Below, one piece after another: positions 1 through 31,024 of a DNA stretch of 31,024 bases. Location: NCBI GenBank assembly GCA_002917775.1, contig KZ627146.1:44104-75127 (forward strand), written 5' to 3'. Below the pieces are notes generated by a model that was given only the letters and a program-made list of their open reading frames with translations, ran no database searches and was not told the DNA's origin. Position numbers and translations under genes: made by a program. Position 1 is the first letter of the stretch; each line of letters starts with the position of its first letter. Source of the stretch: Glaciozyma antarctica PI12. Taxonomy: Eukaryota; Basidiomycota; Microbotryomycetes; Kriegeriales; Camptobasidiaceae.

Positions 1-320
1 AAGGGTACTTTTATGTAGACCATTATCAGAGATGGACTACAGGCTATTACGAAGACATTTGATTCACAATGTAATGAAGTCCTAGGGTCCCTGGGGAATA
101 ACAGGCAGCCGGGGACAAGGGTATGTAGTTTATGTGGACCATAGTATTTATAAAAAGAGGGACTACAGGGTATTACGTAGGCATTGGATTTGATTTACCA
201 TGTAATGAAGTAGGTGGAAATATTATATCATCATGGTTTATATGAGCTTTAATTGGGTAGGCATGACTCGAACATGCGGTAGCGATAGCTAACTTATTTA
301 CAGTAAGTCTCCTTAACCAA
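1..320. repeat. Left arm of large inverted repeat
   Basis: The reverse complement of this segment matches 27884-28202 almost base for base. Differences I could see are one substitution plus run-length changes: a run of five versus four T/A, a run of four versus three C/G, and one versus two A near the outer end. The arm starts at the first base of the window, so its true outer end is unknown. It contains the 3' three quarters of a tRNA-Tyr gene. Confidence 0.93.
253..320 (-). pseudogene. tRNA-Tyr fragment lacking its 5' end
   Basis: From the D-loop to the discriminator base this is the same as the tRNA-Tyr at 27847-27951: anticodon GTA in loop CTGTAAA, long variable arm, T-arm with TTCGAGT, and 3' acceptor strand CTACCCA. 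The repeat arm ends inside the D-arm, and the sequence that follows on this strand does not supply the 5' acceptor strand TGGGTAG or a D-stem. It is therefore a truncated copy made by the inverted duplication. Confidence 0.85.
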
Positions 321-797
321 CATCCCCCTTGTTGCCCCCTGCGGAGCCCGGTAAGCAATATAAATAAGGGGGGCTATTCTAATTCCGAGGTAAGGCTCCT
401 TAACTGAACTAATACTTATAAGAGATTGACTGCAGGTTATTATTAATAGCATATATAAGTAACCTATCATGGCCACACTAGGTAGTTCTTGCTAACCTTC
501 TATTAGTCACGTCCTTACGAAACTTGAAGTTATTTAATGACCTAATAGTTAAGAAGGGCCTGACTGAACGCTCATTCATCTGAGAAGTGCCTTACTCTAG
601 GTGAGTGATTCATTATTATACACTTCATATTATTGTCCATACCTTGTCTATTAGAGATTGAGTATGGACACTCAATACCACACGTAGGCGTTTGACCTAC
701 TCTCATTAAATTGAGATCAGCAAATTATAATGACTGTTAGAGTCCTATCTAGGACAAGGCATCCCAGTTAATGATCTGCTGAGCATATAATACTACC
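321..797. other. Leader region upstream of cob
   Basis: I find no gene here. It contains one forward TATAAGAG motif at 417-424 and short direct and inverted repeats. Short open frames on the minus strand at 173-476 show no recognisable protein and overlap the tRNA fragment. Confidence 0.6.
417..430 (+). promoter_or_regulatory. Candidate promoter motif upstream of cob
   Basis: TATAAGAGATTGAC, the same extended form as the motif next to the rnl 5' end at 12685-12698 (minus strand). It is 370 bases before the cob start codon and points towards it. The function is inferred from similarity to yeast ATATAAGTA and from the layout; it is not proven. Confidence 0.45.
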
Positions 798-3700
798 ATG
801 CGATTACTTAAAACTCACCCTATTTTAGGGCTTATTAATAGCTACATGGTTGATTCACCTCAACCTGCTAGTATTTCTTACATGTGAAACTTTGGTTCAT
901 TACTAGGTGCTTGTCTAGTAATCCAAATTATTACAGGTATTACTTTAGCGATGCATTATACCCCAAACATTGACTTAGCTTTTGTTAGTGTAGAGCATAA
1001 TTTCATTGATGTGTTCTTTAAACTTCATTGTATGCCGAAATCCCGCCACAGCGATGTATTATCTATTGCTGCCAGTTAATATACTACTCCTAGAGTTATA
1101 ATGTATATACATATGAGGTAATCGGCAGGTAAGTAACCTCAGAGACTACGATTGAAGCTGCTACCTTACGCAAGATAGCAGATGATATAGTCCAGGGAGT
1201 TATATGACCTAATCTTTTTCAACCTTCCGAATGAACAAGGCTATAACATCCCTGATTATGCGAGATGTACACTATGGATGATTAATCCGTTACCTACACG
1301 CTAACGTTGCTTCATTCTTCTTCATCTTCGTTTACTTACACATCGGACGTGGTCTATACTACGGATCATACCGTTCACCACGTGTACTACTATGATCTAT
1401 CGGAGTTATCTATTTTAGTTTCTTATGATGGCTATTATATGTGGCCAAATTGGTCTAATCGATTTCTCTTTTTCTATTGGCTAGCTCTGACCCATCAGCA
1501 ATAGCTATGTCTTCAGTGCTACCCTTCTCTAAAGCTCGTACTTGAGCAACTAAACGAATCCGGGCCCCACAGTAAAGAAGTACTGGATATCATTATTTGT
1601 GGGATGCTGGGTGACTGGTGGTCTAACTTAGTACCCTCTAACAACCCTAGCCCTCGGTTCGAAATAGAACAAGCTATGTCTAATTCGATGTATATAAAAT
1701 TCCTAGCTTACACATTATTTCGATTAGGTTATGTCGTATCTACTACTCTTAAGCTTGTAACCAAGTCTGAAGGACTCGTGGATCGACGATCGGACCAGAC
1801 TACTGATCGGAAAAACTGACGGCTTACTACTTTCACGTTTCATAGCTTACTATGAATTCACGAAGGGTTCTATCCTCAAGGAACTAAAATTCGTTCCTGT
1901 CTGAGTTACAGACTATATATCTCCACTGGGGTTTAGCTCACTGGATTATGCAGGATGGCTCACGGCAAACCGGCCAAGGAGTGAACCTTGCTACTAATAG
2001 CTTCACCTATTCGGATTGCCTTATTTTTAGCTAACTTTCTAACTACTAAATATGGCCTTTTAACCTCAGTTGTTAAGACAGGGGGTTGAAGGTCAGTGAC
2101 GTATTGCCATATGGAAGGAATCTATGCCTTTACTACGTTCACTTGTGGGGTTCTCACATGCACCCATCTATGATGTATAAAATAAATTAATCCCCCTTAG
2201 AGAGGGATGTCCCCCCCGGGAGGGGGGACGAAAGAGGTAAGAAAAAGATACAATTAGTATCAAAGTCTTACCGAATGTTACTACACGGCTAATCCGTAAG
2301 CTGTATGATACTGGAAACTTTATGATATAGCTTCCCGATCGACGAAGGAGTAGTAACAGCGTAGATATGCAATCTGTAAGGAGAAATATCTAGTTAAACG
2401 GTAATATGTCCTGACAGGGATATAAAGTAAACAGATAGATAGTTTACTTGGCTACAAAAAGTGAAAACGGTTAAAGGGGGAAGTGTCATCCTCCAGACCG
2501 TCGGTTGTTTACACGATCGCTACAGACTGGGTCACTTTTGGGTGTCTGAAATGATGCTTAATGTACAGTCGGCTTGGTTCTATGCTCTAATCTGAGTATA
2601 CACAAGGCCCTAAATGATATTTGTTAGAAATCACAGGTCCATGGATACAGTGAGGGGATTAACAAATAGATAGGGTACAGGGTTATATTTGATGGACATT
2701 GTTGTTCCGCCCGTCCCCGTGCTCAGGGCGGACTAAAATCGTAGCAACACGCAACTATAGCAAAACCAAAAGAACTGCTTTCCTTGGATACGTTCTTCCA
2801 TACGGTTTTTAGGCCCACATACACCTTATGTGAAATATCACTATATGCTGGAACAGCGCTAAACCCTGCTTCGTACTAGTCCACTAGACTTTACATGCCA
2901 CTAGTCCGCCCTTTGGGGCGGACGAAGGGGGTTATAAAGGACAAGTCATAATCTTAGTAGGTGCGCTCAATCAGCAGGATATCCTCAGAGAATATACGTG
3001 ATACACTTATGCTTTATAAGTGAAGATTTTATTCCACTGCTTATCCATAGCAAATGATATGGATCCAGATATTAATAGACATGTTCATTACAAGCGTCGT
3101 ATTATTCAGTATATGTTTAGTACAACTTAAATCATACATAAGTCCTAAGTACCTTGAGTTTCCTCTTCTCTATACTAAGAAAGGACAACCACGGAAACAG
3201 GCAAATCGTCGACGAAGCCCTATTACACCACTTTAGGTAGGATGCCCCAGATTATCATTGATATGCTGGTGGGGTTCTTTATTGGGAGATGCTTTTGGGA
3301 GCATACCAACTGGTGGAGTAAACCCAGTGTTCGAGATCAAACAGTTAACTATTCATTCAGAGTACTTACGATTCCGTACTATTGCCAACGCCGCGTTAAT
3401 GGCTATCTTTGAGGCTTCTATTCACCTACTTTAGGTCCGGCCCCGGGGGGGGGCGGACGAGGGGGGTAAAAGATTACCTATTAATCTCTCGGATCTTCTT
3501 ACACCTCGTGCTTTAGCCTTCTGAATCATGGATGACGGAGGTGCACACGGGTCTGGTAAGACTCTACATTGTAATAACTTCACGGAAGTGGAGGTTGATT
3601 ATTTTTGATTAAGCTTCTTCTTACGAAGTTTTGGTTTAGTTGCCAACAAGTGAGATAAAGGTGATCGTCATATCATTTATATTACTGCAGGGTCTATGCC

Positions 3701-5130
3701 CACATTTCGGCGTCTAGTCACAGCGCATGTTCACACATCGTTCCATTATAAACTAGGCGCTATTAAAGGATAAGCGGCGCAAATGTCATTATGGGGGAGC
3801 CACTGTTATTACTAACTTACTATCTGCAATCCCCTTGAATTGGACAAGACTTCGTACAATTTGTCTGTACACCTTGGACAACCAAAAATGTTCCTATATG
3901 CGGGGGAACTACTTAACACCCTTTACTATTATATAGTTATAACTCGGGCTTTCAGGTATCATCCGCAAGTCTAATGACTTCAACGAGTTTACGGGACACT
4001 ATACTCTGTTTTATAATAGATTTAGATGATGAACTCTTAACCCTCCCCCTGCTTTACTATAAGTTATAATAAACGTACGGGGGGGGGGGGGCCACAAGGA
4101 GGTGGTTTCAGTGTTAATAACGCAACTCTTAACCGATTCTTCTCATTACACTACCTATTACCTTTCATCTTAGCTGCCTTAGCTGCAATGCACCTATTAG
4201 CACTACACGAGAACGGTTCAAGTAACCCTCTAGGTGTTAGCGGTAACACAGATCGATTACCATTCCATCCATACTTCGTATTCAAAGATCTTGTAACTGT
4301 ATTTGTATTCTTACTTACATTATCAGTAATTGTATTCTACGCTCCTAATCTATTAGGGCACAGTGACAACTACATCCCTGCAAACCCAATGCAGACTCCA
4401 CCATCGATCGTGCCTGAGTGATACTTACTCCCTTACTACGCAATTCTTCGATCTATTCCTAACAAATTATTAGGAGTTCTGGCTATGTTTAGTTCTCTAT
4501 TAATTCTATTAGCAATGCCTATCGTTGACACTTCACGTGTACGTGGTTCACAATTCCGACCGTTAATGCGATGAGCCTTCTGGTTATTCGTAGCTAACTT
4601 CTTCGTATTAATGTTCATTGGAAGCCAACACGTTGAGGAGCCATTCATCACGGTATACACCACATGCCCCATCTGTTTATAGCCGATGCGAATAGGGTGA
4701 ATTGCAAGAACAAACTTCCCAAGCCCGGGGGAGTCAATTTGCAGCGAAGTCTACTGCGGTGCCATTATTGATTTAATGAAGCGGTAGAAACGTTCAACGA
4801 CTAAAAGGTGAAGCCGCGCCGGCAAAAATTCCTTACACGAGCGCCCTACATCCTGTCTAAAGATCTGTATCAGTCCATCACAGAGGACAAAGGGTATCTT
4901 TAACATGTTGATGACATAGTCTGAACCTAGTAGTGATACTAGGAAGTTAGAATTAATTGTTCTAACGATAACAATATTGAGGTGCTGTATCAACTGCATT
5001 CTATTTCTCATGGTTCTTAGTGATCGTGCCAGTTATCGGTATTATAGAGAATACTCTACTAGATATCGCTACTGAGCCTAAATCATCTAGTTCTTTTTTA
5101 ACTAATCCCCCTTTCTACGTCTACTACTAG
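798..5130 (+). CDS. cob: Cytochrome b, six exons
   Basis: Apocytochrome b of respiratory complex III, a multi-pass inner-membrane protein that binds two b-type haems. Proposed exons: 798-998, 1255-1433, 2774-2805, 3779-3867, 4100-4654, 4980-5085 and onward. Landmarks are [62 protein letters not shown] and PSIVPEW. The start ATG gives MRLLKTHP, as usual in fungi. UGA is read as Trp several times. The third exon is only about 32 nt. Homopolymer excesses break the frame at 1413-1416, 1419-1421, 3793-3797 and 3831-3834. After DIATEPKS the printed frame runs on through SSSSF to a TAG at 5128-5130. If the T run at 5094-5099 is one too long, the gene ends in TAA just before a C-core motif. Confidence 0.95.
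999..1254 (+). other. cob intron 1, small group I intron
   Basis: It separates the cob residues EH and IMRDV and is about 256 nt, with no ORF. It contains the core pair seen across this genome: ATCGGCAGG followed by CCTCAGAGACTAC near 1120-1150, and the P7-like GATATAGTCC near 1184. Confidence 0.8.
1590..2185 (+). pseudogene. LAGLIDADG homing endonuclease in cob intron 2, frame broken
   Basis: A single-domain LAGLIDADG_2-type endonuclease. Visible in order: the first motif region [21 protein letters not shown], then [23 protein letters not shown] and the typical end HPSMMYKIN with a stop at about 2185. These proteins cut an intronless cob allele to spread their intron. The parts lie in different frames, and at least one break coincides with a G run near 2150, like the breaks in essential genes. 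It may therefore be intact in reality. A C-core motif follows the stop at 2187. Confidence 0.75.
2187..2198 (+). terminator. C-core-like 3' end motif
   Basis: TAATCCCCCTTA directly after the stop of the intron 2 endonuclease. Same motif as after the host genes; a 3' processing role is inferred. Confidence 0.4.
2209..2229. repeat. GC-rich palindrome
   Basis: A perfect C7/G6-type hairpin followed by GACGAAAGAGG. It resembles the other GC clusters in the cob introns, which share the tail GGAC-GA-G-rich. Confidence 0.7.
2706..2732. repeat. GC-rich palindrome
   Basis: Hairpin with arms TCCGCCC and GGGCGGA in cob intron 2. It shares its arms with the copies at 2903 and 3435. Confidence 0.7.
2903..2924. 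repeat. GC-rich palindrome
   Basis: Arms AGTCCGCCC and GGGCGGAC in the peripheral part of cob intron 3, followed by GAAGGGGG. Confidence 0.7.
3030..3778 (+). pseudogene. LAGLIDADG homing endonuclease in cob intron 3, interrupted
   Basis: LAGLIDADG_2 signatures are [27 protein letters not shown], then [26 protein letters not shown] and a terminal SFHYKLG. The N-terminal and C-terminal parts are separated by a GC-rich palindrome (3435-3458) that does not belong to the family, so a GC cluster appears to have inserted into the gene. Frame breaks in homopolymers are also present. Function is as for other intron-encoded endonucleases. Confidence 0.7.
3435..3458. repeat. GC-rich palindrome inside an endonuclease gene
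   Basis: GTCCGG and matching GGCGGAC arms around a C/G run, followed by GAGGGGGG. It sits between the two halves of the cob intron 3 endonuclease. Confidence 0.7.
3868..4099 (+). other. cob intron 4, ORF-less
   Basis: About 232 nt between DFVQFV-W and GGFSVNNAT, ending in a 13-nt G run (4080-4091 region). The Trp codon TGA is split by the insertion. Confidence 0.75.
4655..4979 (+). other. cob intron 5, group I
   Basis: About 325 nt between EEPFIT and GAVSTAFYF. It carries ACGTTCAACGACTAAAAGG (about 4790) and ATGACATAGTCTGAAC (about 4910), the P3 and P7 strands of a group I core shared with the two rnl introns at 7589 and 8815. Confidence 0.8.
5104..5115 (+). terminator. C-core-like motif after the first cob 3' end
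   Basis: AATCCCCCTTTC, 19 bases beyond the EPKS codons. In every other gene this motif follows a stop codon. Confidence 0.4.
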
Positions 5131-5218
5131 TGGAAAGGGTGTTCGAGGTTATTCTACTTCTACTTCTACTTCCCAGTCCCTATCAGGGACAACGACGATT
5201 GGGAATGTAGATATTTCT

Positions 5219-6506
5219 ATGACTGAGGCAGATGCGAAAGCTATGCTTCTTGATTCTATTGACAACTTCGATTCATCTGCACTTTTAGGTACTTCAGAGG
5301 AGTTCCAACAAGTAGCCAATGGTCTTTTCCAGGCTGAAGGGTCAATTACTGCTCGTTTACGAGGATCAGCGGTTAAACCTTTACTATCACTAGGTCAGGC
5401 TCTTAGTCCGGAGAGTTTATTATTCTTTACACGCCTATGGTTTGCTGTAGGTAAAGCAGGTACACTACATCTAGTGCTATCTGATAACGGTCGTTGAATA
5501 GTTCGACTAAACTCAGAGAGTTGAACTGACATTCTAGGAGTATTCACTCAATATTTCTCGTATGTATATGGAGAGAAGTCCATGGGCTTAATTAAAACTA
5601 TCGGCAATTAATAGCCCTTCGGTTCTTAGATGATACCGCTTACCAAAATAGAAGTGGTTAAATTAGTATATTCATTGACTACTAACTCCTCTAAACGTAA
5701 ATTAACCATATCTCAGTATATGGCGTCTATAGGATTAGTTTATGATGGTAAGCCCGCTCCTAATAGTGGGTTTACAGATAACTTTAGTATACCTAGTTTA
5801 TTATTCCTACTAGGTTTATTACTAGGTGATGGGTCTATCTCCTTGCGTATTCGACACGTTGCCTCTCGTAAAGGTTCCATATGATTAATACCGGCATTAC
5901 GACTAGCTCAACTAGACTCTCTAATGAATCGGCTATTTCTTTACGATGTTCCGTGCTGGTCTAACCTCATTAGGAGTTACATCGGGGATACAGTCCTGCG
6001 ACCTCAAATAGGTCGGGGTATGGCCGAACTGTATACTGAAGGGATAGTGAACGTACTTACTATTCTATTACCATTACTATACCAACACCAACACTTTATG
6101 TATTGGAAGTTTCATCGCTTCGAGTTATTACGGCGGTTAGCCCTTATCATTCATAGCGGCTTACATAATACGCATATTGGTATTATAGCTGCTCTTAACT
6201 TAATATATTCTTACCCTAGTGATCGTGACTATACACTGGAGCACTGGATTGAACTAGCTAACGCATATTACGCACAGTATGACGCTAGTTTAGTATCGGG
6301 TCATGCTAACATAGCGCCATGATCAGGTAAATCTGGTGAGGTCGTAGCCTGTAAAGGTTTTGGTTTTCAAACTAAGCTGAAGGACGGACCTAAGAACAAA
6401 TCATTCGCCTTCAAGAAATACGGAGGGGTCCGATCAAGCTTTATTACTAGCATTGTATTATCGTAACGAGTGTCTACAATCTATCCTTAACGAACTTAAG
6501 TACTAG
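5219..6506 (+). CDS. LAGLIDADG endonuclease following a duplicated cob 3' end
   Basis: A two-domain LAGLIDADG protein. Domain 1 is FQQVANGLFQAEGSITARLRG with SPESLLFFTRLWF; domain 2 is VVKLVYSLTTNSSKRKLT, PSLLFLLGLLLGDGSISLRI and SGHANIAPWSG. It ends near YRNECLQSILNELKY with TAG at 6504-6506. It matches from memory the endonuclease family found at the 3' ends of atp6 and cob in Allomyces and Rhizophagus, where the element also brings a new C-terminus for the host gene. If a C run at 5107-5111 is one too long, its frame opens directly from cob, so it could be translated as a fusion. Frame breaks lie near 5610-5660 and 6424-6428. ATG 5219 is the first methionine of the open frame; the true start is unsure. 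Confidence 0.8.
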
Positions 6507-6592
6507 GTTGTCTTTGCATCTTTATACCCTGTAGTCATCTACAGACCACCATCAGAATTCTTACAGTCTTTACTGTAAGTGTGTCGTCCACT

Positions 6593-6697
6593 GCTGTATC
6601 AACTGCCTTCTACTTCTCATGGTTCCTTGTGATTGTACCAGTTATTGGTATCCTAGAGAATACTCTACTAGATATCGCTACTGAGCCTAAATCATAA
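6593..6697 (+). pseudogene. Displaced original 3' end of cob
   Basis: This encodes [19 protein letters not shown] followed by [15 protein letters not shown] and TAA, the same 35 residues as cob exon 6 (4984-5085) apart from I to L. The DNA differs at about a dozen mostly silent sites in the first two thirds and is identical over the last 38 bases. No start codon or splice acceptor is evident, so it is probably an orphan left when the endonuclease element inserted. Its perfect TAA plus C-core ending suggests that this copy is the native one. Confidence 0.85.
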
Positions 6698-7033
6698 TTT
6701 ATAATCCCCCTTTCATCTACATAGATATAAGAGACTTACTGTATAATGTAATACAACATTAGTCTGCATAGATATAAGAGACTTACTGTATAATGGAACA
6801 TAATATCACATCACATCACATCACATCACGCCTACTACTTTGTCTCGCCCCCCTTTACTAACAGGACACAGTGCTAAGGATATGCTTGTTATACTCTTAA
6901 CCTTACGCAAATACAATATGTATTCCTAAAACGGTTCAACAAGATGACCCACTATGGCGTGTAAAAAGATATGCTTGTTATACTCTTATAGGTTATACAA
7001 TGTTTGGTTGTAACTCTCTTATAGTTACCCCAA
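6698..7033. repeat. Intergenic region with short repeats
   Basis: No gene seen. It holds two copies of a 28-nt unit containing TATAAGAGACTTACTG (6726 and 6773), a (TCACA)n microsatellite at 6806-6830, and two copies of GATATGCTTGTTATACTCTTA (about 6876 and 6969). The second of these pairs with an inverted copy at 12722-12747 on the other side of rnl. Confidence 0.8.
6702..6713 (+). terminator. C-core-like 3' end motif
   Basis: TAATCCCCCTTT five bases after the TAA of the displaced cob end. Confidence 0.45.
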
Positions 7034-8814: not shown

Positions 8815-9113
8815 TTCAATTCTATTATCGAAGGGTCTATTTAAAGATCTTATTCAGTCTCTCACGAAAACTGTTTAGACTATGTCATCAATACCTTATT
8901 ATATGTATTGCCGGGGCGCTCTTGTGAAGGTTATTGCTAGTACAGCTCACTTCTTAGTCGTTGAACGTTCCTACCACGACATCGTTAGATGGTACTGTGA
9001 TAGACTTCGCTGCAAATTGACTCTTGACTGGCAAGAGTGTTTCTTGCAATTCACTCGGTTACTCCAGACTTGTTTATTTACTCTGCTACTTGAGCATCTG
9101 GATAGGGACAAAT
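8815..9113 (-). other. rnl intron at the GGGATAA/CAGG site, group I
   Basis: About 300 nt, no ORF. Exon join GGGATAA-CAGGGTAAG corresponds to the well-used site near E. coli 2449. The core contains ACGTTCAACGACTAAGAAG and GATGACATAGTC. The two rnl introns are thus separated by an exon of only about 54 nt. Confidence 0.85.
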
Positions 9114-9629
9114 TTATCCCTAGCGTAGCTTATCCGTTGAACGATAGCCGTACCATAACGTACTATCGGTTCACTATGCCCTACTTACGTACCTGATTGA
9201 CCTGTCGGTCTTTCAGTCTAGCACACTTTCGCCATTATGCTGTTGTAGACCTTACATGGTCTCTTAGTCCCCCGTCTAAGCTATGTGTACCTATTGGACC
9301 CCCTCCGATGGTATTTTGGAGGGTACCGTCCCAGTAAAACTACCCATCAGACACGTTCCCTCACATTGAGGTTAGTGCGTCTACGATTTGTTGAGGTCTC
9401 TCACTTACGTTATATCAACTACCTCATGCCTGTGACAAATGATAGACTAACACAATGCCTGACTATAGTAAAGCTGCATAGGGTCTTCCCGTCTAACTGG
9501 TGGTAAACCGCATCTGCACGGTTAATTCAATTTCACCGGACTCAAATTTAAGACAGCGAGGGCATCAGTGTTCCATTCATGCAGGACCGTAATTAGCGGC
9601 CAAGGAATTTCGTTCTACCTAAAGGTTAA

Positions 9630-27846: not shown

Positions 27847-27951
27847 TGGGTAGTTTTCCTAGTTGGTTAAGGAGACTTACTAGTTGGTTAAGGAGACTTA
27901 CTGTAAATAAGTTAGCTATCGCTACCGCATGTTCGAGTCATGCCTACCCAA
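27847..27951 (+). tRNA. trnY: tRNA-Tyr(GUA) with internal 21-bp duplication
   Basis: Acceptor TGGGTAG/CTACCCA, discriminator A; loop CTGTAAA; long variable arm; T-arm GCATG-TTCGAGT-CATGC. A perfect 21-bp tandem duplication (27860-27880 and 27881-27901) repeats the D-loop, the 3' D-stem and the 5' anticodon stem. Without it the gene is 84 nt, normal for class II tRNA-Tyr. As printed, it is 105 nt and needs either misfolding tolerance or processing. Confidence 0.82.
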
Positions 27952-28202
27952 TTAAAGCTCATATAAACCATGATGATATAATATTTCCACCTACTTCATT
28001 ACATGGTAAATCAAATCCAATGCCTACGTAATACCCTGTAGTCCCTCTTTTATAAATACTATGGTCCACATAAACTACATACCCTTGTCCCGGCTGCCTG
28101 TTACTCCCCAGGGACCCTAGGACTTCATTACATTGTGAATCAAATGTCTTCGTAATAGCCTGTAGTCCATCTCTGATAATGGTCTACATAAAAGTAACCC
28201 TT
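27884..28202. repeat. Right arm of large inverted repeat
   Basis: Matches the reverse complement of 1-320. It starts inside the second 21-bp unit of tRNA-Tyr and ends beside AACCCTT. Confidence 0.93.
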
Positions 28203-29887: not shown

Positions 29888-30707
29888 CGGTAGGCGGGAA
29901 AATATATATAGAAAGGCAAAAATTAGAACTATTCTATTTATTTAAGCTGTTTAGGGTACTGTTAATAGTATCTAAAACAGCTTAGTATTAGTCCCAGGGG
30001 GAGGCGTAGCTCCCTCAGCCTTGCTAACGCAAGTCATCAGTCGCTAGCTCCCTCAGACGTAAGGCCTTTAATTATATATTAATCCAAGTATAAGTCTTTT
30101 TAATATTAATGGGTTTTTAATATAGGCTTATGCTAGCTCACTCCGTATTGCTTGCGCAATACAAATCTCGCTACGCTCCCTCCTTCGTCAGGCTATAATA
30201 CTATTTAGCCTAGAGTTTGACTTGAGTCTATATATAGATAACAAAGATCCACACTCAGATGAGCTTGTGCCCCGAAAGATGGGAATGGATCTGCGTCGTG
30301 CTATGACTCGTCGCCTCATAATAAATACCTACATGAGGCTATTAACATGACTATAAAATGATTTATATAGTTCTTCTCATCACAAAACCAATTAAACCCT
30401 AATCCCCTTAAGATGGGCTACATCTATAATGCTTTAGGCTGAATACATATACTATTACATCCTACAGACTATTAATAATCTATAGCCTTAACTTTTAGTT
30501 TTCCATATACCTTAAGCCCCTTGTATAGAGCTCTTACACTCGCATGCTCCTGATACCTATTACTGACGTAAAAGGATACACTCGCATGCACAAACACCTA
30601 TCTGAACGAAAACTTATAAGAGTATGACAATAACAATATATCTATATAGGTATACACCCTATCATCCGAAAACTTATAAGAGTATGACAATATATATTAT
30701 TACACGA

Positions 30708-30829
30708 TTTTTATATAAGAGAGAGAGAAGTTATATGGACATAAGAGAGAAGATAGTTTTATATAAGAGAGAGAGAAGTTATAGGAACTAGATAGTTTTA
30801 TATAAGAGAGAGAGAAGTTATAGGAACTA
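30708..30829. repeat. Three tandem repeats of about 39 bp
   Basis: Units GATAGTTTTATATAAGAGAG... ending AGGAACTA begin at 30752 and 30791, with a degenerate first unit from 30708. Each contains TATAAGAG. Confidence 0.85.
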
Positions 30830-31024
30830 GCCGGTTCAGTTTAATATACAGTTAAGGCAGAACGTGGGGGGATAAGGGTTAATCTCTTTTTAGAGTCCCT
30901 CCGGGAGGTGTTGTCACCTGAAAAGGTACCCTGGACAAAGGGATAATAGACTTAACACCCGATACGTTATAAGGCGTTTATAGATACTACTATTTCATAC
31001 TAGTACGGTGCAATATCAAATGCA

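What the first reader, a model, noticed from the sequence alone, without database searches (positions are those of the whole stretch)
4980..6697. cob has two 3' ends separated by a homing endonuclease gene
Exon 6 (4984-5085) and 6593-6697 encode nearly the same last 35 residues, with about a dozen mostly silent differences and a 38-base identical end. Between them lies a LAGLIDADG gene of the type known to replace the C-terminus of atp6 or cob in Allomyces and Rhizophagus. The likely reading is that a mobile element brought a foreign cob tail and left the native tail orphaned downstream. The stop plus C-core layout at 6695-6713 marks the downstream copy as native.
Basis: partly seen in the sequence, partly recalled or inferred. 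Interest (0 to 1): 0.75.

Follow-up and report, generated by a model that had tools for sequence, protein, structure and literature searches.

The report
Mitochondrial cob gene with swapped tail
In the mitochondrial DNA of a fungus, a selfish DNA-cutting gene appears to have given the respiratory gene cob a second-hand 3' end and left the old end stranded downstream, an arrangement already known from other fungi.

Summary
The duplicated cob tail is real. Window 4984-5086 and 6593-6695 differ at 9 of 103 positions, 8 of them silently, all within the first 61 bases. Between them lies an open frame with two LAGLIDADG-like motifs, broken by three in-frame stops. A complete group I intron (4655-4979), too short for an endonuclease gene, joins exon 5 to the upstream copy exactly in register. 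The 7 stop-free splice sites tested for the downstream copy all add residues. That copy starts 3-4 bases past the intron site and is followed by this mtDNA's dispersed repeats.

Best reading: a homing-endonuclease element carried in the upstream tail, probably with the intron, and orphaned the native tail. Glomus cox2 has the same order, so cob is a new member of a known kind. No usable related cob was reachable, so the decisive tree is missing. The endonuclease call rests on motifs; profile searches were weak or negative.

Outside the window, rns of the same mtDNA has the same layout: a 3' end duplicated at about 87% identity around a decayed LAGLIDADG_2 gene. My paper searches listed no rRNA case.

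The parts
4188..4654 (+).
   Evidence: Pfam Cytochrom_B_C 1.3e-37; colinear with solved cytochrome b chains
4655..4979 (+). Group I intron, 325 bases, too short to hold an endonuclease gene; exon ends in U, intron ends in G
   Evidence: Rfam Intron_gpI 70.7 bits, cut-off 50, match 4563-4943; boundaries from the cob frame and recalled group I rules
4980..5130 (+). Upstream tail (exon 6): cob C-terminus to PKS at 5085, then a 14-residue read-on to a TAG at 5128-5130; probable imported tail
   Evidence: join is gap-free in the 5 cytochrome b alignments shown
5105..5113 (+). ATCCCCCTT motif (C-core) after the upstream tail, inside its read-on frame
5102..5608 (+). First half of the putative LAGLIDADG gene; motif ANGLFQAEGS
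5609..5629 (+). Seven codons with three in-frame stops (TAA TAG ... TAG) that split the gene
5630..6466 (+). Second half of the putative LAGLIDADG gene; motif LLGLLLGDGS
   Evidence: Pfam LAGLIDADG_3 E 0.033 for the read-through, under cut-off; motif test
6467..6592 (+). Spacer with no significant similarity to exon 5 or the intron
   Evidence: best blastn E 0.42
6593..6697 (+). Downstream (orphan) tail with TAA stop; lacks the first 3-4 bases of exon 6; probable native tail
6704..6712 (+). ATCCCCCTT motif after the orphan tail
6729..6786 (+). Two dispersed repeats of this mtDNA (AAGAGACTTAC at 6729 and 6776) after the orphan tail; none inside the element

Best explanation
This is a homing-endonuclease 'tail-swap' element in cob. 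An endonuclease cut an intron-free cob at or next to the later intron site. Repair copied in a block from a relative's mtDNA: group I intron, that relative's cob tail, and the endonuclease gene behind it. The recipient's own tail was left downstream as an unused orphan missing the 3-4 bases at the cut. Cob now works by splicing exon 5 to the imported tail. The endonuclease gene has since been broken by in-frame stops and is probably inactive. Shown: the two tails, the intron, the broken frame, the almost silent divergence, the exact join. Inferred: that the frame is an endonuclease, direction, donor, cleavage site, joint arrival of the intron, and that the orphan is unused.
For: 8 of 9 differences silent. 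Complete intron ending just before the upstream tail, with U and G at its borders. Gap-free join in the 5 cytochrome b alignments shown, of 44 sequences matched. Orphan begins 3-4 bases past the intron site, about the size of the overhang LAGLIDADG enzymes leave (overhang size recalled). The repeat AAGAGAYTKAC (20 in 58 kb) is absent from the element and present just after the orphan. Same layout in rns of the same mtDNA with a clear LAGLIDADG_2 remnant, 2.1e-14. Glomus sp. cox2 has group I intron, inserted C-terminus, mORF, native C-terminus in that order, with the native end absent from the mRNA (PMC3630166 section 18 part 1 of 2).
Against: No usable related cob sequence was reachable, so neither tail is shown to be foreign. 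Codon usage leans only weakly to the downstream tail as native. The last 42 bases of the tails are identical (P 0.007 if differences were even), which needs later conversion or a mosaic junction. The upstream frame runs past its C-core, whereas the orphan has the tidier stop-then-C-core end. The endonuclease is poorly recognised: one Pfam match under its cut-off, no match of either half alone, none by LAGLIDADG_1 or _2, no NCBIfam family. Both structure models were useless (pLDDT 36 and 34).
Confidence: 0.74

Rival explanations
1. The upstream tail is native. An endonuclease gene landed just behind it and brought, or copied, a second partial tail downstream. (The Phlebia radiata authors prefer transposition of an endonuclease to a site past the stop codon for atp6.)
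For: The upstream copy is the one attached to the gene and has its own C-core. The Phlebia view: PMC4019555 section 23.
Against: It does not explain why the downstream copy starts within 4 bases of the intron site, or why a non-coding copy would differ almost only at silent sites.
Confidence: 0.13
2. The whole stretch from 4655 to about 6580 is one long intron, alternatively or normally spliced to the downstream tail; the upstream copy is an exon-like passenger inside it (as Tremella nad4-i2, shown by cDNA to be a real intron).
For: The downstream tail has the tidier stop-and-C-core end; Tremella fuciformis has introns with a copy of the next exon at their 5' end (PMC7315562 section 8).
Against: The intron core is already complete before 4980. 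Of 9 in-frame G-ending sites within 130 bases, 2 meet a stop and 7 add residues, the nearest turning V-G-A into V-VSST-A. The upstream join needs no gap.
Confidence: 0.09
3. Assembly artefact: two cob alleles or a nuclear copy joined in one contig. The mtDNA sits at the end of a scaffold that continues into DNA of about 60% G+C across N gaps.
For: The scaffold joins mtDNA to apparently nuclear DNA through runs of N.
Against: No N inside the element; no further copy of the tail listed in the assembly; the same layout recurs at rns.
Confidence: 0.04

Closest known systems
Glomus sp. DAOM-229456 cox2 gene hybrid (PMC3630166; section 18 part 1 of 2 and passages read)
   Same: Same order: group I intron [684-922], inserted C-terminus [923-1018], LAGLIDADG mORF, native C-terminus; intron directly before the inserted tail
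   Different: There the tails were placed by relatives and expression was tested. Here the gene is cob, the endonuclease frame is broken by stops, and the tails are 91% identical (the paper gives 63.5% between its two atp6 tails)
Allomyces macrogynus atp6 hybrid (original paper not seen; as cited in PMC3630166 and PMC4019555)
   Same: Foreign tail, endonuclease ORF, displaced native tail
Phlebia radiata cox2 and atp6 alternative 3' ends (PMC4019555; section 23 and passages read)
   Same: Basidiomycete; cox2 C-terminus duplicated around a 2.5 kb stretch with endonuclease domains
   Different: cox2 and atp6, not cob; for atp6 its authors favour endonuclease transposition past the stop codon
Tremella fuciformis introns with host-gene duplication, including cob-i2 (PMC7315562; section 8 and passages read)
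   Same: Basidiomycete cob carrying a copy of the following exon
   Different: cob-i2 there was reported to be part of the cDNA; only nad4-i2 of the six behaved as a true intron

Membership tests
Tail-swap (mORF) gene hybrid | 3' end of the host gene present twice, on either side of an ORF | tested here: met
   103 bases, 9 differences, about 1.5 kb apart, no third copy listed
Tail-swap (mORF) gene hybrid | Upstream tail continues the gene in frame | tested here: met
   spliced product aligns gap-free in the 5 cytochrome b alignments shown
Tail-swap (mORF) gene hybrid | ORF between the tails is a homing endonuclease | tested here: inconclusive
   Two motifs; Pfam 14.9 bits, cut-off 22.5; halves alone 0 families; no LAGLIDADG_1 or _2 match there; no NCBIfam match; PDB best E 0.7, an rRNA-intron endonuclease
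Tail-swap (mORF) gene hybrid | Downstream tail, not the upstream one, groups with close relatives | not testable with these tools
   No related fungal mtDNA recognised; viral contigs and genome contigs gave nothing usable
Tail-swap (mORF) gene hybrid | Upstream tail in the mRNA, native tail absent | not testable with these tools
   No RNA data
Group I intron | Complete catalytic core, U before the 5' site, G at the intron end | tested here: met
   Rfam 70.7 bits over model 1-253; borders T4654 and G4979; border rules recalled
LAGLIDADG homing endonuclease | One or two LAGLIDADG motifs in an open frame | tested here: inconclusive
   Two motifs 164 residues apart, 0 of 200,000 shuffles had two; frame interrupted by three stops; profile score under the cut-off
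Long intron with passenger exon copy | A 3' splice site that joins exon 5 to the downstream copy in register | tested here: not met
   9 G-ending in-frame sites within 130 bases; 7 stop-free, all adding residues

The most novel reading that the evidence does not exclude
The mobile unit is composite: a group I intron without its own endonuclease gene, a host-gene tail, and an endonuclease gene outside the intron that cuts the intron's insertion site, so one cut moves intron and tail together. The same kind of element has also swapped the 3' end of the small-subunit rRNA in this mtDNA, so the tail swap is not limited to protein genes and the mitochondrial ribosome here carries a hybrid rRNA.
Probability: 0.35. 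Interest if true: 0.65.

Novelty: new member of a known kind. Interest (0 to 1): 0.42.

Why it matters
It adds cob of a Rhodotorula-like fungus (inferred) to the mitochondrial genes whose 3' end was probably replaced by a selfish element; such genes can mislead trees built on them. With the rns case, one mtDNA holds two such layouts, one of them on a ribosomal RNA. If the endonuclease does cut the intron site, this is a natural example of an endonuclease gene moving an intron from outside it, which bears on how mobile group I introns are assembled.

Tried and rejected
C-core as a mark of the native tail: rejected, since ATCCCCCTT occurs at 12 places in 58 kb of mtDNA (0.29 expected from base composition), after both cob tails and both rns tails.

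Codon usage as a mark of the foreign tail: ATA looked promising because PMC3633354 (passages read) reports it unused in R. taiwanensis core genes, but here it occurs 25 times in 2313 core codons; the summed preference for the downstream tail (ln ratio 2.6 over 8 codons) is weak.

Structure prediction: two AlphaFold jobs without alignment gave pLDDT 36 and 34 and were not used for a fold search. Relatives: the second half of the endonuclease frame has no relative in viral contigs or genome contigs (patterns reach close relatives only), and the whole frame matches only itself in its own assembly. The first half alone matched annexin chains in the PDB at E 0.87, chance. The cob query drew 28 viral-contig loci at 44-51% identity, which I judged too distant to place a 34-codon tail and did not tree; the tail pattern drew none.

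Covariation between the two rns tails: 0 compensatory, 3 one-sided, 44 unchanged of 47 predicted pairs; uninformative. Copies of cob or rns ends elsewhere in the assembly that might show the element-free state: none listed. Wasted: protein 1 was given in the wrong frame.

Papers: 8 searches answered. Passages of PMC4894602 report partial duplicates of nad2 and nad3 in Chrysoporthe and Cryphonectria, some with a GIY-YIG domain; PMC4392146 was read whole and not used. For other listed papers only listings were seen. One search returned 0 papers.

Full report
Source. The window is fungal mitochondrial DNA (39.6% G+C). It lies at G000:C1:44104-75127 of a 19.98 Mb assembly in 18 contigs. C1 is 1.05 Mb: bases 1-27078 and the window are mtDNA, separated and followed by runs of N, and the sampled stretches beyond about 77 kb have roughly 60% G+C outside their N runs. 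Size and composition resemble Rhodotorula (R. mucilaginosa RIT389: 19.6 Mb at 60.28%, mtDNA at 40.43%; PMC5691792, passages read). That is a resemblance; I did not identify the species.

Observation. Window 4984-5086 and 6593-6695 are the same cob 3' end. Of 103 positions 9 differ, 8 of the 9 silently (two in one Leu codon), the ninth Ile to Leu. If changes were neutral single steps, 8 or more silent of 9 would have P between 1.4e-4 and 8.6e-4, depending on the transition bias assumed. So most differences arose while both copies coded for protein, as expected of two cob genes in different lineages rather than of a local duplicate that drifted. All 9 lie in the first 61 positions (P 0.0069; 0.0053 counting only silent-capable sites). 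Later gene conversion of the distal end, or a mosaic junction, would explain that; I cannot choose. The upstream frame runs 14 codons past PKS to a TAG at 5128-5130; the alignments with solved chains end before this read-on.

Splicing anatomy. Rfam finds one complete group I core at 4563-4943 (70.7 bits, cut-off 50). At E up to 5 the only other match between 4400 and 7000 is an unrelated family at E 0.19, 21.6 bits against a cut-off of 47. The cob frame and the group I rules (U before the 5' site, G at the intron end; recalled) place the intron at 4655-4979. The two bases before the final G (UU) could pair with the AA after P7, the usual P9.0 contact (my reading; rule recalled). Joining exon 5 to 4980 gives ...[15 protein letters not shown]..., which is gap-free in the 5 cytochrome b alignments I displayed, of 44 sequences matched. 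For the downstream copy, 9 in-frame sites after a G exist within 130 bases; 2 run into a stop and the other 7 add residues, the nearest turning V-G-A into V-VSST-A.

The gene between. Frame 2 is open from 5102 to 6463 except for three stops in a seven-codon stretch, 5609-5629. It holds two LAGLIDADG-like motifs, ANGLFQAEGS and LLGLLLGDGS, at residues 33 and 197 of the stretch starting at 5219; 30 of 200,000 shuffles had at least one such motif and none had two. The pattern was written with these motifs in view, so the figure flatters. Profiles are weak: Pfam LAGLIDADG_3 at 14.9 bits against 22.5 for the read-through, no family for either half alone, no NCBIfam family, and in the PDB a weak match to an rRNA-intron endonuclease (3e54, E 0.7). 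Searching the whole assembly, LAGLIDADG_1 gave 3 matches and LAGLIDADG_2 14, none of them here. Its codons fit core-gene usage better in its own frame than in the other two (-4.10 against -4.19 and -4.39 per codon). Probably a decayed endonuclease gene of another LAGLIDADG subtype, but not proven.

Boundaries. The orphan copy matches exon 6 from the T before GCTGTATC; the preceding AGG does not match. It therefore starts 3-4 bases after the intron site. The spacer before it shows no significant similarity to exon 5 or the intron (best E 0.42), so it does not look like the end of a second, native copy of the intron. The repeat AAGAGAYTKAC occurs 20 times in the 58 kb of mtDNA read, at 6729 and 6776 just after the orphan, and not inside the element.

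A second case outside the window. The 3' end of rns (small-subunit rRNA; C1:11521-12937, minus strand) occurs again about 1.05 kb downstream (C1:10269-10472): 87-88% identical in two searches; my alignment of the cores has 21 substitutions and 4 gap columns in 188. Between them, on the same strand, lie ORF fragments in different frames; one matches LAGLIDADG_2 at 2.1e-14. The dispersed repeat again appears only beyond the far copy (10256, 10201, 10131). The upstream copy completes a full-length SSU match (model 1-1533). Taken alone, the upstream tail scores 25 bits and the far copy 10 against the SSU model, both under the cut-off of 50; the stretches given differed in length, so this is a rough comparison. 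So the same layout sits on a protein gene and on an rRNA gene in one mtDNA. My paper searches that named rns or ribosomal RNA showed no such rRNA case in the listings and passages I saw; I did not read most of the listed papers.

Mechanism. The order intron, imported tail, endonuclease, native tail matches Glomus sp. cox2, where the hybrid is transcribed and the native cox2 end is not in the mRNA (PMC3630166, section 18 part 1 of 2). I infer a cut at or beside the intron site of an intron-free cob, repair from a relative carrying intron, tail and endonuclease gene, and loss of the few bases at the cut. An endonuclease gene outside an intron that serves the intron's mobility is a known theme in phages ('collaborative homing'; listings only, and recall). 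The joint arrival of the intron is the least certain step: the evidence is the 3-4 base coincidence and the Glomus parallel.

What would change my mind. A relative's cob tail matching the upstream copy, or reads joining exon 5 to the orphan. Neither could be tested here.

Noticed in passing
L003:269-472 and L003:1507-1705 (G000:C1:10269-11705, minus strand), outside the window: The 3' end of rns is duplicated at about 87% identity around fragments of a LAGLIDADG_2 gene, the same layout as cob.
   Followed up: yes
window 322+, 2190+, 5105+, 6704+, 13890+, 24733-, 17680-, 7720-; C1 7787+, 11515-, 10277-, 5635-: ATCCCCCTT, often preceded by TTATA, occurs 12 times in 58 kb against 0.29 expected from base composition; four of the sites directly follow the cob and rns tails: a candidate RNA 3'-end signal.
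   Followed up: partly
window 1-321 and 27883-28202: Near-perfect inverted repeat (98.8% over 322 bases), one arm beside the N gap.
   Followed up: no
window 30355-31024, C1:26410-27078, C1:1-355: Repeat shared by three mtDNA edges, 97-98% identical: the mtDNA pieces are probably broken at a repeat.
   Followed up: no
window 4697-4846 (+) and 8914-9054 (-): The cob intron core is 73% identical to the group I intron match at 8855-9125, probably in rnl, so the two introns are probably related.
   Followed up: no
whole mtDNA: LAGLIDADG_2 (PF03161) gives 14 matches in the assembly at E up to 1 (some are pieces of one gene), all in the mtDNA part of C1.
   Followed up: no
G000:C1: The scaffold joins mtDNA to DNA of about 60% G+C through N gaps, probably a scaffolding error rather than a nuclear insertion.
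   Followed up: partly
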